Positions 5,946-58,625 of a stretch of 64,000 nt of DNA are shown here, one piece after another. The notes beneath the pieces were generated by a model. It ran no database searches. It had not been told where the DNA came from and worked only from the letters and a program-made list of their open reading frames with translations. The translations under genes were made by a program, and so were the position numbers. The first letter of the stretch is position 1, and each line of letters begins with the position of its first letter. Source of the stretch: Pteria penguin (lineage: Eukaryota; Mollusca; Bivalvia; Pterioida; Pteriidae); NCBI GenBank assembly GCA_035048485.1, contig CM068589.1, positions 1,523,501 through 1,587,500 on the forward strand. Direction: 5' to 3'.

Positions 5946-6700
5946 CTGAAAGAAAAAAGAGGAGTTACCGGCTCTGTTATGTGGCAGAAGTCACCATGGA
6001 GCTATACAATACATGAATATAAATAATATAATAGAACATTTAACACATTACAAAAATGTTTGATTGTAGTGCATTTACGATACCGACTTAGGACGGTCAT
6101 TTAATTTGACAAAAGCCAAACAAATGGTGTGGTTAACCGGTTTACGGGCCCACCTTTCCACTCACCGTAACAGCAGAACAATCAAAAGACGTACATTTAA
6201 AAATTTATAAATAATCCTCCATGTAAAGAACAAGGGTCAACAGGTATCGCATATTGAGAGGTCATAAAAATATAAACACGTAAGGTATTGTAAAACACAT
6301 AATGGTATAAAAATATATGCGACATCAACATGATAAACCGTGCTCTGCCAGTCTGAAAGCGAGCTAAGACCCTAGATCTGTAAGGAGTCCCGACTAACAG
6401 TCAGAGGGGACGAGGTTCAGGACCATGTCTCCTCTGAAAGAGGTTTGGACAAGGCCCGTCATATAGTCCCCACCGCCCTGTTAGTCAGCGTGCAACGTTC
6501 AAGTAAAAGTCTGCATAAGGCTGTAGAGGGGCCAAATACAAGACCTATAGTCTTTTTGATGATTTCAATTTCATACTGTCTATTTAGGAGACGTTTGACT
6601 ATTTTATTACATGATAAAATAACGTTATCGGAGCCTTTTACTTTCCTTAGTTTATATACGAGATCACCGTAAAAATTAGGATGGGAAATTCCATTGGATA
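5946..6700 (-). repeat. Naiad 3' untranslated tail (reference copy for dispersed fragments)
   Basis: Landmarks on the minus strand are the hairpin-forming GACCTCTCAATATG region, AACCGGTTAACCACACCA, and ACTTCTGCCACATAAC close to the end. The same order follows the RT tail in Naiad copy 2 (46.1-46.4 kb, plus strand), which shows this is the element's own 3' end. If the element does encode selenocysteine, a SECIS element would be expected in this segment; I could not identify one by eye. Confidence 0.8.
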
Positions 6701-9640
6701 CATACTGTTGAAAAGAAATATTTCCAAATTTAGAAGAATTTGCCGAATGTTTTTCTTAGCTTGTGATATCTGTAACCCTGAGTTAAAAGTTTAGTAGTAA
6801 TTTGTAAATTTCGTTTATGAAAGTCCAAAACATCGGTGCAGCCTCTGACAAATCGAACTAATTGAGATATATAGATACCATATGATGGGAGTCGAGGGAC
6901 ATCGCCATCCAAGTAAGGGAAATTTACAATAGGAAATCCAAAATCCTCACGTTTATCATAAATATTAGTATATATTAGGTTGTTGATAATTTTGATGTTT
7001 AAATCTAAGAAAAGTGTAGATTTATCTCAAGTATTAGCTTTATTCAATGTGAGCTCTGGTGGATATATTTCTGATATAAATTGTTCGAATTCAGGGTTAT
7101 CGATAACCAAAATGTCATCCAGATATCTGCAAGTATTATAAAATTTGTCAATGAGGTCAAAACGTTTTGATTTTAGAATAGAAACCATAAAATCCCTCTC
7201 ATAACAATAAAGAAATAAATCTGCTATCAGAGGCGCGCAGTTAGTACCCATAGGAATCCCAACTATTTGTTGATATATCTTGCCATCAAATTGCACAAAA
7301 ATATTATTCATGAGAAAATCTAGTGCTTTACATAATTTCTTGCAAGTCCAGTATTTATATGAAGTATATTGTTTGTTGGAAAAGAATCCAGAGTTATTGG
7401 AAGTACATATGTACGTTTTAGATTCTCTGTGAAAACACCATTGTATAAGAGACAGCAACTTGCTTTTAATCAAATCATAAGGCAGAGATGTATAAAGTGT
7501 AGAAAAATCAAATGTAGAAATTTGAGTCGCTTTGAAATTTAGCGAAAGAAGTTTGTCTATAACTTCATAAGAATTTTTAATCGACCAAAAGTAATTGATG
7601 TTACTATTATGAAATGCGACATCACAATATTTGATAATATGATCTTTTATAGCAGTTAGAGCAGACGTAATATGTTTCGATAGTACCGTACTAGAGCAGT
7701 GGCTAGAATTAGATATGAAACGTGATTTATATGGACTTTTATGTAGTTTTGGGAGCCAATACATGGTTGGTAGATCAGATTTATCAGTTTTGATTTTGAA
7801 GTCGGACATGGTCATGAGGTGATCGTGCAAGGTGCTCTCTTTTGACGTAGGGCTTTCAACATATGTATGAGTGGAGTTTAATTCGTTTTTAAGTACTTCA
7901 ATATAATATAGTTTTCAAACAACTATTATGTTATTACCTGCTTTATCAGCAGGAACAAAGACCTATTTAGCATGCAAGTCAGCTATCTTCTTTTTAATAG
8001 AATTTGTCGTCAATGTATTAGGCTGTTGAAATAAATGCGGATTTTCCGTAAAGTTCTTAATACGGATATCGACAATTCTTAAAATCTCGAATTTCCAATC
8101 ATTAAGAGCATGAACATTTACCTGTTCTTTTTTACACCAACGTTTACAATATGTAGTTAAAGCATCTTCTATAACGTCATGGCATTTATTGAAATCTATC
8201 CTGGACGGTAACCTATATTTAGGTCCTTTTCCAAAAAGGGTGCGCAATTTCTTGTCCGAAATAGTTTAGGTCACCAGTAATAACATGACCTGCCGGTTTA
8301 TAAACATATTTAGAATTTTCACAAGAACACGACGAAGGAATAGAGTCTGAAACATCAGGGTTAGATGTGACTTTATTATAATTTAAAATAAGATTTCTTA
8401 CAGGCTTTTTGTACTGGTAACAAATAAGTGGAGGTTCTAAATTCTCAAAATATTGGGGGATTTTAGATGTGACTCTATGATCACGGAAAATATTAGAAAT
8501 GTTAAGTAGATCGAAGCCTTTATTAATAAATCTAATTTTGAGAAATTGCTGCTTGGGTGGAAGAGACGGAATACGAGGAAAGAGTTTATTATATGAAAAT
8601 AAAATAATCAAATTGAGTTTATATCAATCAGAATTGCATAAACTTCGAAGATCAGCTTCGTCCAGGATAGGTTTCAATTTATTGACCGGAATAGAGGATA
8701 GTGCATGCAAAAGTTCATGACGGCCATTATTTTTTGCGATAAATAGAAGATCGTTTAATGACCTATTTAAACGATTACGTTTTCTGATGTTACGATTACG
8801 ACGACGACCATGTGACCTACGTTTTTTTAAAAGTTTTATGTCTTAATGTAAAAATATTGATCTTATTCTGACGAGAAGAAATATTACCTTGTCGATATAT
8901 TTGGTCGTTGAGACCAAGAGGGTATGGGGTTTGTAGTTGTTTAATCCAGTAGAGCTCGGTTTCCAAAAGTCGTTTTTTAACATCTGATTTCGTATCACCT
9001 GGTAATTTGGAGATATTTTCTACTGGAGTTATTTTCACATTGTTAATATTATGTTGGTATTTATTAAAGTGGTTATAAAGAAAATTCTGGTATTTACGTC
9101 GTGAATTATTACGAATTTTATAGGAATGATTTCGAAAACTTTGTTTCAAAATTTGAAAAGTTTCCCCGACATATTGAGCCCCACATCCTCTAGCTTCTCA
9201 AGTGATGACATATATAACATTGGCAGTATTTCAATCTATGTCTTTGTCTAATTTGGTGTTAAATATATTTCCATTAACCGAAGATTCAATATTGGACTTG
9301 CAGTTTAAATGATGGCAAGTAAGACATTACTTGGCGTTGCACTTATTAATCTTAGAATACCCTCTGCGTATAGAATTGACAGCTCTGTAAGAATTTATAG
9401 GTGTGAATGTTTTTGAAAATGAGATCGAACGTTTAATAGGGAAACTACTTTTAAGTGGAGAAATAAGAACTTTAGTGGTGCCGAATAATTTTCTACAAGA
9501 AAACCAATGTCCGCTGTCACGGTATAACTGACACGTAAAGGCAGACCATATAATAGAAATAATCGAGAAGACGTTAAAGAAAATAACCTTTTTGCCATTT
9601 TACATGATGTAAGGGGCAATACCTGAGGAATGCAACATTA
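6700..9640 (-). pseudogene. Naiad PLE polyprotein: GIY-YIG - CxC - RT, with in-frame TGA codons
   Basis: An N-terminal stretch near 9560-9400 (TCQLYRDSGHWFSCRKLFGT) leads into the Cys/His motif (CLTCHHLNC). The GIY-YIG core follows (NVIYVIT, QYVGET, then the Arg in SFRNHS and Glu in ETELYWIKQL). Next are a basic patch (GRRRNRNIRKRNR), the CxC linker (SSCSCENSKYVYKPAGH) and LFGKGPKYRLP. The RT has motif A FDFSTLYTSLP, motif B GIPMGTNCAPLIADLF and motif C YLDD, all intact, and the tail ends near 6720. Breaks are frameshifts at a seven-T run near 8822 and at about 8235, TAA at 9327-9329, and TAG at 7963-7965. In-frame TGA codons lie at 9231-9233, 9198-9200, 8624-8626, 7915-7917 and 7027-7029. 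The TGAs may be selenocysteine codons rather than lesions. Confidence 0.8.
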
Positions 9641-15706: not shown

Positions 15707-16254
15707 GAAAGTTGGTTATACATCAAATTTCTCCGATGGATAAATCATATAATTAATGTAACAAAACGGAAATTAAGCTATACATTAACTGTTCCCGGGA
15801 ACAACCTACGTTATATCCTTTTTCCGGAAAGACTACTATATAACACCAGTGGGAACAAAAAAGATACGATTTGTTTATCTCATAGGCGATTTTGCATTGG
15901 TTACCTTGGTGTGTTACCGATTGATTCAATACTGGGTGCCAATTATTCATTTAAAGTCAACATTGTCCTTAATTTGTAATCGACTATTAGTGACAAGTAA
16001 ACTCACGGCCTACACTGTGGAAATCAAAAGAGTATTTGAAGAACAAACTCATTACCGTGAAAACGTGAAAGCCAAAGATTATTCAATCACATTGCTATTT
16101 TGGACTGAGACCGATTCCGATATCTTTACAATTCAATGCACATAGTATTATACTCCTTCAAAACAAAATACCGATTTGCACATAATTAAAGAATTCATAT
16201 TTTGTATAAAACAAGCTTACAAGGGAGTTAACTCATGTGGGATTGACTCTATCA

Positions 16255-16553
16255 AAGAAAAAATAGGAGTTACTGGCTCAGTTATGTGGCAGAAGTCACC
16301 ATGGAGCTATACAATACATGAATATAAATAATATACTAGAACATATACACATTACAAAAATATTTGATTGTAGTACAATTATGATACCGACTTAGGACGG
16401 TCATTTAATTTGACAAATGCTAAACAAATGGTGTGGTTAACCGGTTTACGGGCCCACCTTCCCACTCACCGTAACAGCAGAACAATCAAAGGACGTACAT
16501 TTAAAAATAAATAAAAAATAATCCCCCACGTAAAGAACAAGAGTGAAAAGGTA
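16255..16553 (-). repeat. Naiad 3' tail fragment, interrupted by MITE-2
   Basis: It runs from the terminal AAAGAAAAAATAGGAGTTAC through GGTTAACCGGTTTACGGG to AAAGAACAAGAGTGAAAAGG. The MITE then starts exactly at the TA found in the parallel sequence of the other copies (AGGTATCGC). The Naiad sequence does not resume beyond the MITE. Confidence 0.85.
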
Positions 16554-30189: not shown

Positions 30190-30194
30190 GTCAA

Positions 30195-31180
30195 AGAAAA
30201 TAAGGGATACACTCTGGAGGAGGCTCTTCCTTTAACAGGTAAGAATGAGTGATCCAAGAGTGCCCTATGCGGAGTCTATAAGTAACAACTTCATCTCGAC
30301 GATTATTATGATTACAATGTAGTTTATTTTTAAAAATTGGCTTGAAATCATGAAGTTTATTGTTAACTTCATGATCCCAAGCTTCTTGTGTTAAAGTCTC
30401 AATATAGTTAAAAATACAAGTTTTAAAGTCGCTATATGGAATTTTACCTACAGTATTAGATCTATATACAGCTTCTTTTGCTACTTCATCAGCTCTAACA
30501 TTACCAACCAAACCCATATACCCTGGAACCCAACAAAATGCAACCTCCAAATTATTTAATTACAGAGAATCCACTTTCTCTAAAATCTTCAGAACATATA
30601 AATTACTTGTATTGAAATATTTAATAGCCTGAAGACACGATAAAGAATCAGAATAAATTATATTTTTAGAATATTTGTCTCTTTCGATGTGAGTAAGGTC
30701 TAAAAGTATAGTTTAGCTTCTGCAGTAAATATAAAGCTATTATCAGGTAAACGTACGGATAGAGTAACGTCATTATCTGTTACTGCAGCAGCTGCAACTC
30801 TTATCATCAACCTTAGAGCCATCTGTATAGTACGATTTATAATCGGAGTACAAAGACGCAATCTCCAAAAACATTTGTTGATATTGGAGAGAGTTTGTAT
30901 CATGTTTCTTATAATCTGATAATTTAAGTATGACTGTAGGTCTCTTCATCAACCATGGTGGCGAAGAAGGTATTTCGTATTTAGCTATATCAGATAGCGT
31001 GATGCCAGCCTCCTCGATAAGTGGTTTAACACGTAAGTCTATACTTTTAATGTTATTTGGTTTATTAAGATATTGTATTTCATATTTCGGCTTAAAGACA
31101 CAGTTAAATGCAGGATTTGATGGGGTTGCATACAGTTTAATGATATATTGTAATGTTAATTCAACTCTTCTTTCATTCAA
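30195..31180 (-). pseudogene. RT C-terminal region and RNase H of the I-like element
   Basis: PSSPPWLMKRPTV is followed by the RNase H motifs YYTDGSKVDD, FTAEAK, IYSDSLSCLQAI and FCWVPGYMGLVGNVRADEVA. The usual His in the last motif (V-P-x-H) appears as Tyr. The C-terminal SWITHSYLLKEEPPPEC ends in a Cys-containing segment common in these elements. Confidence 0.75.
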
Positions 31181-31357
31181 AGAAGGTTCATTTGCTTCCG
31201 AGTATAAACTTTGTACAGGTGAGGTCCTGAAAGCACCAAGTCTGAATCTTAAGCCCTGGTGATGTATGGTGTCCAGAAGCTGTGAATAAGACTTTCTGGC
31301 CGAACCATAAACAATACAAACATAGTCCAGCTTCGATCGGACCAGCGATCTATAAAG

Positions 31358-32405
31358 CTAGAGCAACGTTGTACTTTCAGCACCCCACTCTGTACTAGGG
31401 AAAACTTTCAAAATATCTAAGGCTTTTAAACATTTGACTTTTAAAGATTTAATATGCGATAAAAGAGACAATCGTTTATCAAAGATGACACCAAGATATT
31501 TCACTTCATTTACTACATTTATCCTATTACCATCCATAAAAAGTTCAGGGTCATTATGCATTCGTCTATTCTGGCAGAAATGAACGCAAGAAGTTTTATT
31601 TTTCGAAAATTTAAAGCCGTTTTCTCTAGATCACTGAAATATGTCATTCAGACAAAGCTGTAGTTTCTCTCAATTAGATTCATATTTGTACCGCGACAAC
31701 ATATCAAAAAGTCATCAACATAAAGTGATCCATCTATATCATGTTTTAAAACCTGTGTTAAGCTGTTTATTTTGATAGTAAAAAGAGTAACCGACAATAT
31801 ACTTCCCTGAGGAACTCCCATCTCCTGTTCAAAAGAATCAGAAACATGAGAGCCAAGTCGAACATTAAAACATATATCTTTCAGAAAGTTTGAAATAAAT
31901 ATTGGCAAACTGCCTCTTAAACCCATATCATATAGATCCTTTAAAATACCATATTTCCAGGTAGTATCATACGCTTTCTCCAAACCAAAAAATATGGAGA
32001 CAACATGTTCCTTATTAACAAAGGCATCACGTATATACGTTTCAAGGCGCACAAGATGATCCATGGTGCTCCTCTGCTTCCTGAAACACACTGAAGATCA
32101 GTGAGAAAATTATTGTATTCCAGGAACCAGACAAGACGTTCATTGATCATTCGTTCTAAAGTTTTACAAACGCAGCTCGTTAATGATATTGGCCGATAAT
32201 TAATAGGATCAGTATGATCCTTTCCAGGTTTTGGAATTGGAATTATAATAAATTGTCTCCACGACTCTTGGAAATCACCATTCAACCAAATGTAATTAAA
32301 AATATGAAGTAAAATATTAAAAGATTCTAACGGAAGATGTTTTAAAATTTGATAATGTACTTCATCCGGACCAGTTGCAGTATCATGTGATTTTTGCAAA
32401 GACAT
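31358..32405 (-). pseudogene. Reverse transcriptase of the I-like element
   Basis: ATGPDEVHYQILKHLP and FIIIPIPKPGKD with NYRPISLTS mark the fingers. Then come motif A FFGLEKAYDTTW, motif B GVPQGSILSVTLF, motif C YVDDF, and the thumb VKYLGVIFDKRLS. Motif A has Gly where the first catalytic Asp is expected. Two frameshifts (around 32090 and 31560-31650) break the frame. Confidence 0.8.
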
Positions 32406-32796
32406 TTGTAATTCTTCAATCGAAAACGATTCATTATAATCTTCCTAATTATTCGACGAAAATTTTAATTTTAATTTTTCAGATTTTTATTTTAAACGAC
32501 GAAATTGAGGGAGACAATTATCAGGCGAAGAATTCTTTGAAAAAGTATCCCCAAAACAATTGGCAATATCAATTTTGGATGTTAAAATATTAGAGTTATG
32601 GTGAAAATGTTTAACATTATTTGAAGTACCTTTACCTTTTAGTCTATTAATCATTTTCCATACCTTATTTGTAGGTGTATGAGTATTAACTTTGGAGACA
32701 TACTTTCTCCAGGATAAACGTTTGCAGTTATTAATGGTACGCTTGGCAACCGCTCTACGATGGCGAACTTTATTTAAATTTGACGAAATAGGATGT

Positions 32797-33683
32797 CTAA
32801 ATTCTGCGATCTTTGATGACACTTTTACAGTTATCATCAAACCATGGGTTGTATTTAAGGTTAGAAAATGTAGAGGTCTTAGGAATGTTCAATTCACAAA
32901 TCTGAACTAATGTATTTGTAAAAGTAAGAATAGGGTCGTTTTCAGCTAAATAATTAATTTGATTCAGATTCGTGAGGCAATCAGATTGAAATTGACACCA
33001 GTCAGCTTTATTAAGTTTCCAACGTGGAATACAATTATTATTAGACGATACATTACTATGTAATATAAGTGGAAAATGATCACTCCCACATAAATCGTCA
33101 TGACCTGACCATAAAAAGTCAGTCAAAAGCGATGGATCAGTTAAAGTAAGATCTATTGAAGAATAAGTACCATGTCCTGGATGTAAATAGGTACTGGATC
33201 CATCATTAAAGACACATAAATTATGTTTTGATATAAAATCTTCAATTATTTTACCTTTGGTATCAACACTGTCACTACCCCATAATATATTATGAGCATT
33301 AAAGTCACCAAATAAAATATATGGTTTAGTTAACTGCCGAACAAGTTTGTCCAATTCAGTGCAATCTAGACTTGCACTAGGCGGAATATATACTGAACAA
33401 AACGTAATAGTTTTATGCAGTGTTATACAGCAACAGCTTGTAAAGCTGTATCTAATATAATATCACTATGCAAGAAGATGGACGAACCACCTACAGCTCT
33501 TTCATTAGCACTATAAATATTATATCGAAAAAAATTCTTCAACTGAAGAGCGTCTGTGTCCTTAAGATGAGTTTCCTGTAAAAAGAATGCCGGTGAAAAT
33601 TGCTGGTTAAGGAGATGTAATTCATTAATATTTACTTTCAAACCTCTACAGTTCCACTGAATTATAGAATCGCGATATTTCAT
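32797..33683 (-). pseudogene. APE-type endonuclease domain of the I-like element
   Basis: Motifs in order are IIQWNCRGL, FLQETHL (catalytic Glu), GDFNAHNILWG (Asp and Asn), SSIDLTLTDPSLL and GSDHFPL (Asp-His). All key residues are present. A frameshift near 33355-33423 divides the domain. The enzyme would nick target DNA to prime reverse transcription. Confidence 0.8.
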
Positions 33684-39099: not shown

Positions 39100-39392
39100 C
39101 TTACTATTTTTCCTTTTTAAATTAAATTTTTAAATGTACGTCTTTTGATTGTTCTGCTGTTACGGTGAGTGGGAAAGTGGGCCCGTAAACCGGTTAACCA
39201 CACCATTTGTTTGGCTTTTGTCAAATTAAATGACCGTCCTAAGTCGGTATCGTAATTGCACTACAATCAAATATTTTTGTAATGTGTTATATGTTCTAGT
39301 ATATTATTTATATTCATGTATTGTATAGCTCCATGGTGACTTCTGCCACATAACTGAGCCGGTAACTCCTCTTTTTTTCTTTTTGACATACG
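39100..39392 (+). repeat. Naiad 3' tail fragment inserted in the gypsy element
   Basis: It runs from TACGTCTTTTGATTGTTCTG through GGGCCCGTAAACCGGTTAAC to the terminal AACTCCTCTTTTTTTCTTTT. Gypsy coding sequence begins immediately after, at 39393. Confidence 0.85.
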
Positions 39393-40830
39393 AGTAAGTT
39401 CAGCCTGTGAAAGGTCATATGAGACAGTTGTACCTGTCTGTGGGCTCAATATCATAGTGTCCGACATATTGCACTGACATTTCAGAAGTCAGGGTCCGAC
39501 TTCGGACCACTGTCATCCGAGAAAAGGCTTTCTATGTTCAGGTCATCTGACTTAGTGTCAACAAGTTCTTGCGATGGATATTTTTCATCAGAATGCGCAA
39601 GATATTTTAATCTTGCCCTTTTCAGCCAAATGGGATGATCCTTGTCTTTACAGAGTTTAAGCCTGTCATGATGTATGACATATTCTTTATTTTTCTTGTC
39701 TAATATTTTATATAGAACAGGTGATTTGACTTCTGTTACCATGGAAGGACCTTTCCAAGGATATTTTAATTTTGAACTTTGGCCCAATTTTGTAACTGAC
39801 TCTACTTTAAGTACTGTGTCTGATTTTAGTTTGTGTCATAATATTTCATAATATTAGTAAGACGCTTACTCTCCCCGGGCACCTGGTCTCACCTCGGAAT
39901 TTTTCAGTATTTCGGGGTTCACAAAAGTTTCTTTTTGAAACGATTTTGTATCTGTCCTTGGACTTTGAGAATGATTAACGGTTTGGTACTTCTTCGATAT
40001 TGATCTGTCTACATTGTGCCAAACCAATATTCTCCCTTGCCATATCATGACTTACTGACATCTCTGTAACTAAATCACAAATGAAATCTGATTTTTCCTT
40101 TTCTGGGTTGTTTAATTTTGTATTTCCTAGCATAATATCAATGGGTTGAGTTACCTCCCTTCCCAGCATCATAAAGTTAGGAGAAAATCCTGTCTGTCTA
40201 TTTTGATAGGACCTGATCGCTCCCGCAAACTGTTGTAAATGTACATCCCTTGTGTGACATGTGTCTCCCTTTCAAATAGCAGCACAGCATGTGTAAGCTA
40301 ATTCTGTTATATCTTTCTATCTGTCCATTTAATGAAGGGTGATAGGGAGTTGTTCTTGTCTATTTTAATTTCAAGTAAATCACATAGTTTACGAACTAAA
40401 TTCCCATCCATATTTTCACCCTGGTCATTTCCATAGGACAACCAAATCTTGAAAAAAAATCATTTACTAATGTTTTCATTACTGTTTCTGCATTTTGATC
40501 TGGTAATCGGTGATATTCCATCCATTTTGTAAACTGATCGATGATCATTAAAATATATTTGTTTCTCATATTTGTGACTGGCAAGGGACCTAAAATATCC
40601 ATATGTACTCTTTGCATGGGTGCCCCAGCATGATACTGTCCAAGTGCAGATTTTGATTTTACATTAGGTTTCTTGTTTTTGTTACATTCTGGACATGTTT
40701 CAACATAATTCCTATAAGTTTGTTTCATCCCATACCAAAATGCACATTGTTTGACCTTTTCTAATGTTTTGTTTTGGCCCAATGACCGATGATCGGTTGT
40801 CATGACATTGTGATAATATTTCTTTGTACT
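39393..40830 (-). pseudogene. Gypsy integrase remnant
   Basis: The HHCC zinc domain (HNVMTTDHRSLGQ ... CPECNKNKK) lies near 40690-40815. The catalytic core has HMDILGPLPV and IIDQFTKW; the second acidic motif NDQGENMDGN is reached only after a one-base frameshift near 40430. FSPNFMMLGREV and, beyond a PLE tail insertion, a GPY/F-like module (KYPWKGPSMVTEVKSPVLYK) complete the C-terminus. Confidence 0.8.
39860..40005 (+). repeat. PLE family Q tail inside gypsy integrase
   Basis: CGCTTACTCTCCCCGGGCAC, CTCGGAATTTTTCAGTATTT and ACGGTTTGGTACTTCTTCGA are shared with 43690-43850 almost base for base, in the same orientation. The two copies bracket the gypsy coding region. Confidence 0.8.
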
Positions 40831-43989: not shown

Positions 43990-46400
43990 AATATCTGTCG
44001 TGTTTTATCAATGATGTAATTGTTTACTGTACCTAAACCTAAAATACATCTAATCGTAATGTTCTAGACTCTATTTCATCTTCGTTTACTTGTAATAATT
44101 CAATATATGTATAGAAACCGGCAGGTCATATCATTACCGGTGTCCTAAATTTTTTTTCTAATAAAAGTTTGCGTTCACTTTTTCGTAAACAACCTAATTA
44201 TAATATAGTGTAGATTTCAATAAATGCCGTGATGTATTAAAAGAAGCGTTATAAATATACTGTAAACGTTGGCGAAAAGAAAAAGAAAAATTCCAAAAGT
44301 TATCGACATCCGTATTAACAATTTTACGCAAACTCCTCATTTATTCAAGCAGCCAAATATACCGTCAGCTCAGTGTATTAAAAAGGCAGTATGTCTTTGT
44401 ACCAGCTGATAAACCAGGCAATAATATAATACTTATATTAATATACTTCAAACAGAATGAAACAGTACCAGAACTTATGTTGAAACACTACGTCGAAAGA
44501 TAACACCTTGCATAACCACCGCATGACTATGTCTGATTTCAAATATGATCTTCCAACAATGTATTGGCTTCCTAAATTACATTAAATCCATATAAATCAC
44601 GTTGTAAATCTAATTCCACCATACGCTCTAAACATATTACGTCTGCTCTAAGATCATATAATTAAATACTGTAATACTACATTGCATACCTGTAACATTG
44701 ATTACTTCAGGTAAAAACTCTACCGAAGTTGTAGAAAATCTCTTTTACGTAATTTCCAAGCTACTGAAATCTCTACACTTGATTTTTCTACTTTGTATAC
44801 CTCTCTTCCACATGATTTGATTAAAAGTTGTCTCTCATACGTTGGCATTTCAACAGAGAATCTAAAACATATTTACGTACTTCCAATACTCTGCATTCTT
44901 TTCTAACAAATATATTTCGTATAAATATTTGACTTCCGCAGAATTTTATAAATGCATAGTGTTTTTGATGAACAATGTTTACGTGCAGTTTGATGGTAAG
45001 ATTTATCAGTAAATAGTTGGGATTCCTATGGGAACTAATTGCGTGCCTTTTATACCAGATTTTTTTATATTGTTAAAAAGGGACTTTATGCACACTAATA
45101 AAAAATCTAAACATTTTGATCTGATTGATAAATTCAATGATACATCTGGATATCTTATGACATTTAGTTATCGATAACCATGTTTTTGAAAGATTTGACT
45201 CTTTCTACTGGGTATATGTGACGGGTGTTGCTAGCAAGCAGGAGATGCTCACTCTCCCCCGGCACCTGATCTCACTCCATCACAGGGGTTCACATGTGCT
45301 GTACTAGTAGACATATTTTGTTATTTTCCGTTTGTTTTTCATTTTCACTGATTTTGTATGTCCTCTGGTTTCATGATTTTTGGACTTGTGGTTTGGATTT
45401 ATCCATCATCTTTACATATATGCCTAAAATATACCCAACCGAACTTAAATTAAGCAAAGTTAATATTTGTGATACAGAGACACCTTCCTTAGACTTGAAC
45501 ATTAAGATAATTAACTATAATATTCATCCTAATATTTACTGACGATTTTCGATGGTTTTGATTTGGATGGTGATGTTTCTAGACTCCCATTATATGGTAT
45601 CTATATATCTCAGTTGGTTCGATTTGCCGGGGTCTGCACTAATGTTTTGGACTTTCATATAAAAAAAATTTGAAAATTACTTTAAAACTTTTAACTCAGG
45701 GCGACAGATATCACAAACTTTGTCAAGTTCTTGAGATCGTATTCAACACTTTCATCTAAATTCGGAAATATCACTTTTCAACAATATGTATCCAATGGAA
45801 TTTCCCATCCCGATTTCTACAGTGAAATTTTCTACAAACTTAGGAGGGTCAAAGGTTCCGACAACTTTATTTGTCGGGTTAAAAATAATAAACGCCTTCG
45901 TCATAGACAATATGGCCCGGAGATCATTAAAATCTCTAATTCTAAGTCTTGTATGCGGCCCCTCTTTATCCTTATAAAGAGTTTTATGTAAACGTTGCAG
46001 ACTGACTAATGACGGTGGAGACTAAATGATCTTGTTGATACCTCCTTCCGATTAAACATTGTCCCTTCGGACTCCTAAGGAGCAAGGGCCTGATCTCGCT
46101 TCCAAACCGGCAGAGCTCTGTTTCCTCATTTTAATGTCGTCTAAAATATTTTTGAAACCATGATATTTTTCTGCTCTACCATAGTTGTTTATATATTTTT
46201 ACGACCTCTCAACTTGAGATACTTGTTGATCCTTGATCTCTATATAGTGGAATATTTATATTTTTAAACGTGTGTCCTTTGATTATTCTGCTGATGCGGA
46301 AGTTGGGCCCGTAAAATAGATAATCATACCAATTGATCGACTATTGTCGTATCAAATGACCACCCTACCCAGTAACGTTGAAGCACTCCACGGTGTCATT
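43990..46400 (+). pseudogene. Naiad PLE copy 2, RT part and 3' tail, heavily decayed
   Basis: The copy begins within the CxC linker (SISSSFTCNNS near 44075, first Cys changed to Phe; KPAGHIITG near 44120). It then has VFVPADKPGNNII (44390), MTMSDF and LPTMYWLPKLH (44530), LDFSTLYTSLPHDLI (44780), and a degraded B/C region. A family Q tail is inserted at about 45200-45425. The frame resumes with TELKLSKVNICDTETP (45440-45490), in which the codon aligned to the copy-1 TGA is TGT. The 3' tail (46180-46400) matches that of copy 1. Confidence 0.8.
45200..45425 (+). repeat. PLE family Q tail inserted in Naiad copy 2
   Basis: GGAGATGCTCACTCTCCCCC, GGCACCTGATCTCACTCC and CAGGGGTTCACATGTGC interrupt the RT reading frame between the YLDD region and the downstream ELKLSK motif. 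This dates family Q activity after this Naiad insertion. Confidence 0.7.
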
Positions 46401-54200: not shown

Positions 54201-57200
54201 AGTAACTGTTCAAAGATTTACAATTACATTCTCAAGGTTCTAGCAATGACATAGAAAGAAAAAAGAGGAGTTACTGGCTCAGTTATGTGGCAGAAGTCAC
54301 CATGGAGCTATACAATACATGAATATAGATAATATACTAGAACATATAACACATTACAAAAATATTTGATTGTAGTGCAATTACGATACCGACTTAGGAC
54401 GGTCATTTAATTTGACAAAAGCCAAATAAATGGTGTGGTTAACCGGTTTACGGGCCCACCTTCCCACTCACCGTAACAGCAGAACAATCAAAGGACGTAC
54501 ATTTAAAAATTTATAAATAATCCTCCATGTAAAGAACAAGGGTCAACAGGTATCGCATATTGAGAGGTCATAAAAATATAAACACGTAAGGTATTGTAAA
54601 ACACATAATGGTATAAAATATATGCGACATCAACATGATAAACCGTGCTCTGCCAGTAGAAAGCGAGCTAAGACCCTAGATCTGTAGGAGTCCCGACTAA
54701 CAGCCAGAGGGCACGAGGTTCAGGACCATGTCTCCTCTGAAAGAGGTTTAGACAAGGCCCGTCATATAGTCCCCACCGTCCTGTTAGTCAGCGTGCAACG
54801 TTCAAGTTAAAGTCTGCATAAGGCTGTAGATGGGCCAAATACAAGACCTATAGTCTTTTTGATGATCTCAATATCATATTGTCTATTTAGAAGACGTTTG
54901 ACTATTTTATTAGAAAAACATTTTCTTGTTCATAATAAGCATCATTACTTTAAATTGGGGCTAAGTGTATTCACGTGCATACTGGTACCCACTGGTCATC
55001 AAACTGGTACCCACTGGTCATTATAGGGTACACAGTGGCCATCATACGATACTCATTGGTCATCATAATGGTACCCACTGGTCATTATACTGGAACCCAC
55101 TGGACATCGCACTGGTACCCACTGGTTATTATACCGATATTAACTAGTCAACATACTGATATTCACTGGTCATCATACTGATACCAACTGGTCACCATAC
55201 GATACCCACTAGTCATCATATTGATACCCACTGGTCATCATACTGGTACTCACTGGTCATCATAATGGTACCCACTGGTCATCATACTGGTACCCACTGG
55301 TTAACATACTGGTACCCACTGGTCATCATACTGATACCCACTGGTCATCATACTGGTACCCACTGGTCCTAATACTGGTATCCACTGGTCATCATATTAA
55401 TACCCACTGGTCATCATACTGGTACCCACTGGTCCTTATACTGGTATCCACTGGTCATCATATTAATACCCACTGGTCATCATACTGGACCCACTGGTCA
55501 TCATACTAGTACCCACTGGTTATCATACTGGTACCACCTGGTCATCAAACTGGTAACAACTGGTCATCATACTGGTACCACGGGTCATACTGGTACTGAA
55601 TGGTTATCATAGTGATACCCACTGGTCATCATACTGGTACGCATTGGTCATTATACTGGTACCTACTGGTCTTCATTATGATACCCACTGATGATCATAC
55701 TGGTACCCAGTGGTCATCATACTGGTACGGACTGGTCATTATACTGGTACTCACGGTCATTATATTCAAATAATTAGTATGGCTAGCCGAAATAAAATCT
55801 CCTTAATAAAATCTATGTTATGCCAATCAGAATACATCTATTATCCTTAACTTAATCAAAGAAAATGTAGTTTACTTATCTATATAGTGGTTAAACAATA
55901 TTTATGATCATTTACCTCCATTGGTGTAAACCTGCCATTAATACTGTGTTCAGAGCCTTTGTTGGGTGATGATCCTAAATGAATATGCATTTGCTTGAAT
56001 CGAAATCGCCCTTTAGGCATAACAGGATGGAAGAGATTGAGAAACACATCATTCTCTACTCGCTCAAACTCTGGAGCATGGTTATCTGCAAAATACATTT
56101 ACTTTTTATTTATACCTGTCATTTCTGGTTTGGGGGACACGGGCTAATGTAATTTCACTTTTCCGAAAAGAGGCCAATAATGGCCATGGCCGGAATGGGC
56201 AGTATATAACTGTAAATTAGATATATAGTAATACATCTGCTTTCAAACAGACAATACCGATTACTTATCGCTTGACCATACTAAATGATGGTACCGACTA
56301 AACCATACTAAATGATGGTACCGACTTAACCATACTATATGATGGTGCCGACTTAACCATACTAAATGATCTTACCGACTTAACCATACTAGATGATCTT
56401 ACCGACTTAACCATACTAAATGATCGTACCGACTTAATCATACTAAATGATCGTACCGACTTAACCATACTAAGTGATGGTACCGACTTAACCATACTAA
56501 ATGATCTTACCGACTTAACCATACTAAGTGATGGTACCGACTTAACCATACTAAATGATGGTACCGACTTAACCATACTGAATGATCGTACCGACTTAAC
56601 CATACTAAATGATCTTACCGACTTAACCATACTAAATGATCGTACCGACTTAATCATACTAAATGATCGTACCGACTTAACCATACTAAGGGATGGTACC
56701 GACTTAACCATACTAAATGATCTTACCGACTTAACCATACTAAATGATGGTACCGACTTAACCATACTAAATGATGGTACCGACTTAACCATACTAAATG
56801 ATCTTACCGACTTAACCATACTAAATGATGGTACCGACTTAACCATACTAAATGATCGTACCGACTTAACCATACTAAATGATCGTACCGACTTATGTCG
56901 GTTAAGTCCGAATTATGATATGCAAAATCTCTAGTATTTTATGACATATTTCACTTTTTCCTTACATTTATGCTCTATACCTTATGGACCTCTTATATTA
57001 TGCCAGTTATGTTACGTTACCACCTTTTGTAACCCAGTAATCATCATAGAATGTATTAAAAACATGTATGGAACACTCACAATTATTTGAGATCTTTACC
57101 GTCACTTGTGCCATGTATGGTACAAGGACTAGAGGTGGAAGACTAGGAACGATTTTTGTAGTAGACTGCTTTATGTTGATCGGTGATTGTCGTTTTTTGC

Positions 57201-57780: not shown

Positions 57781-57949
57781 ATCCACATCAATGCTGGGCT
57801 GTGTCAATCCATGCAACTCACTTAAATAAAGCCACAGATAAGTAATAACTATATTAAAACTAAATAAATAAACTAAATAACTAAATAAATTATCAAAATG
57901 TTGAAGGCGATATAAGCTTTCTTTGGATTACATATAGCAAAAGCATACA

Positions 57950-58400
57950 AGAGAAAACAGAAAATATCTGACCAAGCTTTATGACACAAGTCACCAAGGA
58001 CATGTGGAGCAAGCAATAGAACACAGAAGATATCTGACCAAGCTTTATGACACAAATCACCAAGGACATGTGAAGCAAGCAATAGAATACAAAAGATATC
58101 TGACCAAGCTTTATGACACAAATCACCAAGGACATGTGAAGCAAACAATAGAATACAGAAGATATCTGACCAAGCTTTATGACACAAATCACCAAGGACA
58201 TGTGGAGCAAGCAATAGAACACAGAAGATATCTGACCAAGCTTTATGACACAAATCACCAAGGACATGTGAATCAAGCAATAGAATACAGAAGATATCTG
58301 ACCAAGCTTTATGACACAAATCACCAAGGACATGTGAAGCAAGCAATAGAATACAGAAGATATCTGACCAAGCTTATGACACAAATCACCAAGGACATGC
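57950..58400. repeat. 66-bp tandem array upstream of gene B
   Basis: About 6.5 units; within each are ATCTGACCAAGCTTTATGAC, ACAAATCACCAAGGACATGT and GAAGCAAGCAATAGAATACA. The unit is stop-free in one plus and two minus frames. It begins about 170 bp upstream of the gene B start codon. The last unit merges with a diverged Naiad 3' tail (58425 on), and part of the unit (TTATGACACAAATCACCAAGG) resembles TTATGTGGCAGAAGTCACC of that tail. Confidence 0.9.
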
Positions 58401-58424
58401 ACACGAAAATGACAATACTAAAAT

Positions 58425-58625
58425 GTACACGGAAAAATGACTTTACAAAACATGTGGTTACGATAACGACTTCAGACGGTCAATTAAAGTAACAAACGCC
58501 ACTTAATAGGTGTGGTTAACGCCCAACTTCCCACTCACTGCAAAAGCATCACAATCAAAAGACACACGTTTTACTATTTATAAATAATTCTCCATATAAA
58601 AAATAAGGACAAATTCACAAATATT
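58425..58625 (-). repeat. Diverged Naiad 3' tail next to the 66-bp array
   Basis: GTTACGATAACGACTTCAGA, TAGGTGTGGTTAACGCCC and TCACAATCAAAAGACACACG appear in the order of the reference tail with many changes. 58626-59825 is otherwise unassigned (poly-A/AAAT runs at 59175-59250). Confidence 0.7.

What the first reader, a model, noticed from the sequence alone, without database searches (positions are those of the whole stretch)
7027..9233. Naiad-type retroelement with in-frame TGA codons at likely cysteine positions: candidate selenocysteine-encoding retrotransposon
Seen: five of the seven in-frame stops in copy 1 are TGA (9231, 9198, 8624, 7915, 7027), while the RT catalytic motifs are intact. 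At 7027-7029 the codon aligned in copy 2 (45468-45470) is TGT (Cys). The TGA at 9198 sits where the first Cys of an 'I-T-C-x-x-C' motif in the GIY-YIG domain is expected, giving a U-x-x-C-like pair once a 6-bp duplication is discounted. The TGAs at 7915 and 9231 also fall where I would expect Cys. Known: Naiad PLEs of clams and spiders were reported to encode selenoproteins with several selenocysteines. Inference: this family reads UGA as selenocysteine.
Basis: partly seen in the sequence, partly recalled or inferred. Interest (0 to 1): 0.87.

Follow-up and report, generated by a model that had tools for sequence, protein, structure and literature searches.

The report
Selenoprotein jumping gene in a bivalve
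A transposable element found in many near-identical copies in what is likely a bivalve genome carries UGA stop codons at five fixed places inside its gene, plus an RNA hairpin that matches the selenocysteine signal, so it probably makes an enzyme with five selenium-containing amino acids, a trick recalled as already reported for related elements of clams and spiders.

Summary
Observation confirmed; the selenocysteine (Sec) reading is strongly supported, with two corrections. Copy 1 (9506-5949, minus) is a dead copy of a Naiad-type Penelope-like element; 39 other copies from the same genome are 98-99% identical to it. In them its five TGA sites read TGA in 20/21, 21/21, 36/36, 39/39 and 39/39, while its TAA and TAG are private. 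Three copies have over 1,200 codons free of TAA/TAG. Rfam's SECIS_1 passes its gathering score at 6470-6407, on the right strand and in the right place. The genome has two tRNA-Sec genes. Of 150 scored genome matches each, 144 keep one TGA around the RT-fingers site and 141 keep two around the endonuclease sites. Among 70 homologues, three of the five sites alternate between Cys and an apparent UGA. Corrections: the TGAs at 8624 and 7027 are not at conserved Cys positions; the spacing after 9198 is a lineage trait. Sec-encoding Naiads of clams and spiders are recalled from Craig et al. 2021 (not held): a new member of a known kind. Unusual: the stop codon lies inside the SECIS core.

The parts
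5949..9506 (-). Copy 1 of the Naiad-type element, 5'-truncated by roughly 250 nt relative to copies that stand in tandem
   Evidence: Match limits against 39 copies: 3' ends cluster at 5949 within a few bases, the longest copies enter at 9506; spacing to the upstream 3'-end block in L019 and L022
8823..9311 (-). Frame segment with the N-terminal GIY-YIG endonuclease region (UGA at 9233 and 9200)
   Evidence: Translation; GIY-YIG Pfam matches (E <= 0.01) in 8 of 17 members of alignment A3
8264..8821 (-). Frame segment with the linker (UGA at 8626) and the CxC motif
   Evidence: Translation; CxC aligned in homologues
6733..8262 (-). Frame segment with the reverse transcriptase (UGA at 7917 and 7029, private TAG at 7965, YLDD)
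   Evidence: Translation; the model of homologue P0002 resembles telomerase RT
6462..6731 (-). C-terminal frame segment ending ...LTNRAVGTI
   Evidence: Translation
9231..9233 (-). UGA, predicted Sec site 1 (protein 123), at a conserved Cys of the endonuclease region
   Evidence: TGA in 20 of 21 copies; 13 C, 3 W, 1 R among 17 covering homologues
9198..9200 (-). UGA, predicted Sec site 2 (protein 134), first Cys of the I-T-C motif
   Evidence: TGA in 21 of 21; 15 C, 3 W, 1 N among 19
8624..8626 (-). UGA, predicted Sec site 3 (protein 325), linker, not a conserved Cys
   Evidence: TGA in 36 of 36; 16 L, 7 W, 16 others among 39 homologues
7915..7917 (-). UGA, predicted Sec site 4 (protein 562), conserved Cys of the RT fingers
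   Evidence: TGA in 39 of 39; 144 of 150 genome matches have one TGA in the piece; 25 C, 14 W, 2 R among 41 homologues
7027..7029 (-). UGA, predicted Sec site 5 (protein 858), mostly Ser in homologues
   Evidence: TGA in 39 of 39; TGT in copy 2, TGC and TCC in two relatives in L037; 17 S, no C or W among 34 homologues
6459..6461 (-). Terminal stop TGA, inside the SECIS core (A-TGA-C)
   Evidence: TGA in 39 of 39 copies and in 6 of 7 diverged relatives that cover it; SECIS alignment; P0019 ends exactly at this point
6407..6470 (-). SECIS element (RF00031)
   Evidence: 36.6 bits against a gathering score of 35, E 0.0011 for the whole window
6390..6488 (-). Longer hairpin: extra basal helix of about 11 bp whose 5' arm encodes the last codons
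   Evidence: RNA fold of the L022 copy
5949..6406 (-). 3' untranslated tail, also found as a block upstream of some full copies
9327..9329 (-). TAA private to copy 1 (decay)
   Evidence: AAA in 20 of 20 other copies
7963..7965 (-). TAG private to copy 1 (decay)
   Evidence: TAT 38, TAC 1 of 39
44046..46367 (+). Copy 2: older, 5'-truncated relative (about 70% identical), TGT at 45468-45470, SECIS not detected
54254..54912 (-). 3'-end fragment, 96% identical to copy 1, with its own SECIS at 54773-54710
16254..16553 (-). Tail fragment, 92% identical
39123..39382 (+). Tail fragment, 97% identical

Best explanation
The feature is a decayed copy of a Naiad-type Penelope-like retrotransposon present in many near-identical copies, whose single reading frame holds five fixed in-frame TGA codons and ends in a SECIS-matching hairpin, so that the host is predicted to read those five UGAs as selenocysteine. 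Inferred working: the element mRNA recruits the host's SECIS-binding factors and Sec-tRNA(Sec); ribosomes insert Sec at positions 123 and 134 (endonuclease region), 325 (linker), 562 (RT fingers) and 858 (just before the FLDL motif), 591 to 2,796 nt upstream of the SECIS core, and stop at the sixth UGA, which lies inside the SECIS itself and so is likely not decoded. The full protein (about 1,054 residues) would then nick DNA with its GIY-YIG endonuclease and copy its RNA by target-primed reverse transcription. Shown by calls: fixed TGAs, the open frame in three copies, the SECIS match and its place, tRNA-Sec genes, Cys alternation at three sites. Inferred: Sec insertion, the enzyme activities and their dependence on selenium. 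Copy 1 in the window is itself dead.
For: TGA fixed at five sites (one CAA in 21 at the first) while TAA and TAG are private to copy 1. Three copies with frames over 1,200 codons free of TAA/TAG. 144 of 150 and 141 of 150 scored genome matches keep the TGAs. Changes shared by 3 or more copies: 13 synonymous, 8 non-synonymous (crude normalised ratio 0.20) against 0.84 for singletons, which suggests that the transposing lineage is under protein-level constraint. SECIS_1 above gathering score at the right place in copy 1, in 10 of 13 further loci, and 46 bits in a 75%-identical relative. Two tRNA-Sec genes. In 70 homologues the sites 123, 134 and 562 are almost only C or W; in P0002, P0003, P0006 and P0007 a W also stands at the terminal stop, which indicates that their gene caller read TGA as W. 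SECIS plus basal stem is better conserved than the rest in 6 of 7 diverged relatives (pooled 570/693 against 3253/4234, p = 0.0014).
Against: No call shows Sec in a protein or UGA decoding. Among young copies TGA fixity partly reflects recent ancestry, and the SECIS is no better conserved than its surroundings there (0.82% against 0.79-0.83% divergence). In 3 of 13 loci scanned the main copy's SECIS is below the gathering score. Two UGAs are not at conserved Cys positions. Exceptions exist: 1 of 21 copies has CAA at site 1; 6 of 150 and 9 of 150 matches lack the full set of TGAs. Copy 2 has no SECIS match up to E = 5 and goes against the conservation trend (52.5%). W meaning TGA is supported directly for four homologues only. 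Pfam recognised no domain in the L022 protein or in P0008, and the structure search for P0008 found nothing at E <= 0.001.
Confidence: 0.93

Rival explanations
1. The TGAs are ordinary decay: stop mutations of a dead retroelement, for instance by deamination of CGA codons.
For: Copy 1 is truncated and has TAA, TAG and frame breaks. Rare stops do arise in copies (18 in 35,414 cells).
Against: Only 4 of the 18 rare stops are TGA; at that rate five TGAs in a row have a chance of about 0.0005, before counting fixation in up to 39 copies, open frames in three copies and the SECIS.
Confidence: 0.02
2. The UGAs are read through without selenium (near-cognate tRNA), so that the element makes mostly an endonuclease fragment and rarely the full protein.
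For: Two of the UGAs lie at non-Cys sites, and UGA is the leakiest stop (recalled).
Against: Five successive leaky stops would give almost no RT. It leaves the SECIS, its position and the Cys alternation at three sites unexplained.
Confidence: 0.03
3. The SECIS and UGAs are relics: the lineage once encoded Sec but now moves with proteins supplied by Cys-type relatives.
For: Relatives with TGC or TGT at site 858 exist in the same genome.
Against: The TGA copies are the near-identical, recently spread ones with low shared N/S, and relics would be expected to gain TAA/TAG and Cys codons at these sites. Supply in trans cannot be excluded from sequence alone.
Confidence: 0.04

Closest known systems
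Sec-encoding Naiad elements of clams and spiders (Craig, Yushenova, Rodriguez and Arkhipova 2021; abstract recalled, nothing read: paper not held)
   Same: N-terminal GIY-YIG, CxC linker, RT, several Sec codons per protein; host of this family likely a bivalve
   Different: Sites, SECIS position and host species could not be compared; whether its elements end inside the SECIS is unknown to me
Cys-type Naiads and other N-terminal EN+ PLEs (homologues P0015, P0022-P0027, P0183; locus L052)
   Same: Same domain order and motifs; Cys at 123, 134 and 562
   Different: No W at these three sites; L052 has no SECIS at gathering score
Fowlpox virus GPX4 with a SECIS inside the coding region (PMC8310308 and PMC6769590, passages seen)
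   Same: SECIS overlaps coding sequence
   Different: An unrelated enzyme, and there the SECIS lies within the ORF; here only its 5' edge with the stop codon is coding
Mollusc selenoprotein P with many UGAs (title in a reference list only; paper not held)
   Same: Many Sec codons per mRNA in molluscs
   Different: A host gene, not a mobile element

Membership tests
Naiad-type Penelope-like element (defining features recalled) | N-terminal GIY-YIG endonuclease, RT C-terminal to it | tested here: met
   Region order in the translation; Pfam (E <= 0.01) finds GIY-YIG in 8 and RVT_1 in 10 of 17 aligned homologues, but nothing in the L022 protein or P0008
Naiad-type Penelope-like element (defining features recalled) | CxC motif in the linker | tested here: met
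   Cys at residues 424 and 426, aligned with C in 47 (first) and 51 (second) of 55 covering homologues
Naiad-type Penelope-like element (defining features recalled) | RT related to telomerase RT | tested here: met
   Foldseek of the model of homologue P0002: the top 16 PDB matches are telomerase RT, best E 2.5e-11, TM-scores low (0.26-0.33 by query length)
Naiad-type Penelope-like element (defining features recalled) | No canonical hammerhead ribozyme | tested here: met
   No hammerhead among gathering matches in the window and in 6 loci with copies
Naiad-type Penelope-like element (defining features recalled) | Pseudo-LTR or tandem arrangement | tested here: met
   3'-end blocks about 250 nt upstream of the matched start of the main copy in L011, L015, L019, L022, L029 and L034, 6 of 39 loci
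Naiad-type Penelope-like element (defining features recalled) | Insertion in fingers domain | not tested
   Not examined in the model
Eukaryotic selenoprotein gene | In-frame UGA kept among copies and relatives | tested here: met
Eukaryotic selenoprotein gene | UGA alternates with Cys in homologues | tested here: inconclusive
   Met at sites 123, 134, 562; at 858 only in two relatives of this genome (TGC, TGT) with Ser and others elsewhere; not at 325
Eukaryotic selenoprotein gene | SECIS downstream on the same strand | tested here: met
   RF00031 above gathering score in copy 1 and in 10 of 13 further loci, just below in 3
Eukaryotic selenoprotein gene | Host able to decode Sec | tested here: met
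   Two tRNA-Sec genes, 77.8 and 77.3 bits, anticodon TCA; three more matches just pass the cut-off (47.2 bits), one of them is tRNA-Ser by ARAGORN, two not checked; other decoding factors not tested
Eukaryotic selenoprotein gene | Sec present in the protein | not testable with these tools
   Needs mass spectrometry, ribosome profiling or selenium labelling

The most novel reading that the evidence does not exclude
The bivalve Sec-Naiads have fused their stop codon to their SECIS: the terminal UGA is part of the core AUGA of the hairpin, so the ribosome that finishes the RT melts the very signal that lets following ribosomes pass the five UGAs. Selenium supply and ribosome traffic would then jointly cap full-length protein per mRNA, a built-in dose limiter that leaves the RNA free for reverse transcription.
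Probability: 0.2. Interest if true: 0.72.

Novelty: new member of a known kind. Interest (0 to 1): 0.58.

Why it matters
Selenoproteins are few and mostly redox enzymes (recalled); a reverse transcriptase with Sec at conserved Cys positions of both its nuclease and its fingers asks what selenium does in DNA mobilisation, and would tie the activity of a genome parasite to the host's selenium supply. The copies are near-identical and numerous, so the question can be tested in living animals. Ordinary gene finding hides such elements: homologues in public protein sets appear here as pieces or with what look like false tryptophans.

Tried and rejected
Pfam on the L022 protein and its pieces gave no family but one chance-level match; domain identity rests on homologues and structure. 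Foldseek of the P0008 model gave nothing at E <= 0.001. No relatives confirmed in viral contigs; in genome contigs five distant loci, likely animal contamination in bacterial assemblies, the longest match (L052) with Cys at the three sites. SECIS conservation inside the young family carries no signal. No COX1 in the assembly, so the host was placed by one HSP70 gene: by identity the best named matches in the listed 120 are bivalves (85% Mytilus californianus, Pecten maximus, Ylistrum balloti), with one unnamed contig at 94%; several higher-scoring rows are long proteins of other taxa at 66-79%. The species is not resolved. Rejected: chance decay, Sec replacing a conserved Cys at all five sites, and the 6-bp duplication. 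Papers: searches found no held paper with both 'Penelope-like' and 'selenocysteine'; the looser searches gave capped listings in which I saw none by title or opening lines. Passages only were seen of PMC10941475, PMC10294476, PMC8310308 and PMC6769590. The key 2021 paper and the mollusc SelP paper are not held.
Full report
1. What is there. On the minus strand, 9506-5949 is a damaged copy of a retroelement. Its protein runs in four frame pieces (9311-8823, 8821-8264, 8262-6733, 6731-6462) with stops TAA 9329, TGA 9233, TGA 9200, TGA 8626, TAG 7965, TGA 7917 and TGA 7029 (high coordinate of each codon). Pieces of relatives lie elsewhere in the window, among them copy 2 (44046-46367, plus) and a 96%-identical 3' end at 54254-54912.

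2. Is it more than chance? The window lies in an unnamed 838-Mb genome (C10:1523501-1587500). A 2,207-base query gave 41 matches, the window's own copy included, the others at 97-99%; only 40 of 4,093 first-look candidates were scored, so this is a lower bound. I fetched the 39 other copies and aligned them with copy 1: copy 1 is 98.0-98.7% identical to them, and they are 97.7-99.4% identical to each other. TGA sites: 9233 is TGA in 20 of 21 covering copies (one CAA), 9200 in 21 of 21, 8626 in 36 of 36, 7917 in 39 of 39, 7029 in 39 of 39, terminal 6461 in 39 of 39. Non-TGA stops: 9329 reads AAA in 20 of 20; 7965 reads TAT in 38 and TAC in 1 of 39. Over 1,022 codons and 35,414 codon cells (290 gapped cells set aside) no other stop is shared by 10 or more copies; rare stops are 11 TAA, 3 TAG, 4 TGA, each in one copy. 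Of the 39 copies, three (L014, L019, L022) have a stretch of 1,210-1,211 codons without TAA or TAG.

3. Genome-wide. A 71-residue piece around the fingers site gave 150 scored matches (of 6,000 first-look candidates): 144 with one TGA, 2 with one TAA, 4 with no stop. A 55-residue piece around both endonuclease sites gave 150 (of 1,891): 141 with two TGA, 6 with one TGA, 2 with one TGA and one TAA, 1 with one TGA and one TAG. The tool counts stops in the piece, not at a given codon. Only best-scoring places are scored, so both samples lean towards young copies.

4. Selection. Codon changes shared by at least 3 copies are 13 synonymous and 8 non-synonymous, a ratio of 0.20 after crude normalisation; singletons are 146 and 384, ratio 0.84. 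The lineage that spreads seems to keep its protein; single copies decay. The shared counts are small.

5. The SECIS. A gathering-level Rfam scan of the whole window returns two matches of any kind, both SECIS_1 in this family: 6470-6407 (36.6 bits) and 54773-54710 (37.0 bits), gathering score 35. Of 13 further loci scanned, the main copy passes in 10 (L009, L010, L012, L014, L019, L022; L011, L033, L038, L040) and falls just below in 3 (L046 34.4, L015 32.9, L037 31.2 bits). L019, L022 and L011 have a second one in the 3'-end block upstream. A relative in L037 that is 75% identical overall scores 46 bits. Copy 2 shows none up to E = 5. Among 40 copies (copy 1 included) the 64-nt element is identical in 29, but its divergence from the majority (0.82%) equals that of the surrounding 3' UTR (0.79-0.83%), so the young family alone gives no sign of constraint. 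In the seven more diverged relatives found in the fetched loci and the window that cover it (below 96.2% identity), the hairpin with its basal stem is 570/693 identical against 3253/4234 elsewhere (Fisher p = 0.0014; sites are not fully independent). Six of seven go that way against the pooled rest (one L033 copy is below its short ORF part, 77.8% against 80.4%); copy 2 goes the other way.

6. Sites in relatives. Two searches gave 70 distinct homologues (29; 45, of which 4 repeats). By residue: site 123: 13 C, 3 W, 1 R of 17 covering; site 134: 15 C, 3 W, 1 N of 19; site 562: 25 C, 14 W, 2 R of 41 (one gap besides); site 325: 16 L, 7 W, 2 C and 14 others of 39 (one W, in the distant P0027, may be an alignment accident); site 858: 17 S, 5 N and 12 others of 34, no C or W. 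In P0002, P0003, P0006 and P0007 the frame runs on past the stop as GTI-W-R-(A/D)-L-S-K, so their gene caller seems to have read TGA as W; the residues that follow are compatible with an AUGAC...AAA SECIS, in three of the four with AAACC. For the other homologues W = TGA is an inference. A further site, the first Cys of the CxC motif (424; 47 C, 7 W, 1 S of 55), is Cys here but W in some relatives. So the set of Sec sites appears to differ between lineages. At 858, relatives in this genome read TGC (L037, 94.8% identical), TGT (copy 2) and TCC (L037, 75% identical), which suggests a path Ser to Cys to Sec.

7. Host. Two tRNA-Sec genes (77.8 and 77.3 bits) are confirmed by ARAGORN with anticodon TCA; weaker matches of the same search are not Sec where checked (L050 is tRNA-Ser), and the search also rings in all 14 control genomes, in 5 over the cut-off. 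A complete-looking HSP70 frame (L057) matches named bivalves best by identity (85% and below) and one unnamed contig at 94% (best 120 of 7,993 listed). Contigs C1-C14 make up 99.85% of the assembly. The host is likely a bivalve; the species is open.

8. What it is. N-terminal endonuclease region, CxC linker, C-terminal RT. Of 17 aligned homologues, 8 match GIY-YIG and 10 RVT_1 in Pfam at E <= 0.01; P0008 and the L022 protein match neither. A profile of 25 homologues matches I-TevI weakly (E = 0.013). The AlphaFold model of homologue P0002 (mean pLDDT 78) matches telomerase RTs in the top 16 PDB hits (best E 2.5e-11, TM-scores 0.26-0.33 by query length). Its confidence falls below 50 from residue 840, shortly before the stop position at 849. 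No hammerhead was found in the gathering scans. Blocks of 3' end stand upstream of the main copy in 6 of 39 loci. This is the anatomy recalled for Naiads (Craig et al. 2021).

9. How it most likely works. The ORF opens at an AUG in the context AAAAUGG, preceded 63 nt upstream by an in-frame stop that is itself a TGA, so a start further upstream is not excluded; P0008 starts at the matching Met. It is about 1,054 codons long. The five UGAs lie 2,796, 2,763, 2,190, 1,479 and 591 nt before the SECIS core. The sixth UGA is the UGA of the core AUGAC itself. Inference: it ends translation, because a ribosome there has already opened the hairpin. Sec would replace two Cys of the endonuclease region and one of the RT fingers. 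What Sec gains there (metal binding, redox sensing or nothing) is not known from these data.

10. Known or new. Multiple Sec in Naiads of clams and spiders is recalled from the abstract of Craig et al. 2021, which the library does not hold. Searches found no held paper with both 'Penelope-like' and 'selenocysteine'; looser searches were capped listings without one that I recognised. A SECIS within coding sequence has a precedent in fowlpox GPX4 (PMC8310308, PMC6769590; passages seen), and a title in a reference list reports up to 132 UGAs in mollusc selenoprotein P. I therefore file this as a new member of a known kind, with the stop codon inside the SECIS as its least familiar trait. Whether that trait is in print was not searched beyond.

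Noticed in passing
window 6488-6390 (minus): The SECIS is prolonged by an extra helix of about 11 bp whose 5' arm encodes the last residues (LTNRAVGTI), so protein end and RNA structure share the same bases; homologues P0002 and P0003 keep nearly the same C-terminal residues.
   Followed up: partly
L037:3486-4712: A relative 75% identical overall has a better SECIS (46 bits) and a Ser codon (TCC) at the fifth Sec site, as expected if Sec at 858 is a late gain.
   Followed up: partly
homologues P0008, P0151, P0162, P0169, P0175, P0178, P0181: W in place of the first Cys of the CxC linker motif: likely a sixth Sec site used by sister lineages but not by this family.
   Followed up: partly
L052 (NYSS01000008.1, titled Planctomycetota MAG): A bacterial assembly contig carries a nearly complete Cys-type Naiad, probably animal contamination; Bathymodiolus symbiont assemblies hold fragments too.
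   Followed up: partly
L022 and L029 (C14:10785700-10795700): Copies stand head to tail with about 250 nt between the end of one and the matched start of the next.
   Followed up: partly
window 30191-33354 (minus): Broken pieces of what look like a non-LTR retrotransposon (endonuclease-like, RT and RNase H-like frames), judged by eye.
   Followed up: no
window 40396-40803 (minus): Integrase-like frame of an LTR-type element, judged by eye.
   Followed up: no
window about 55000-55600, 56298-56873 and 57873-58492: Three stretches of short tandem repeats that stay open over many repeats (for example MVKSVRSFS, LGDLCHKAWSDIFC), judged by eye.
   Followed up: no
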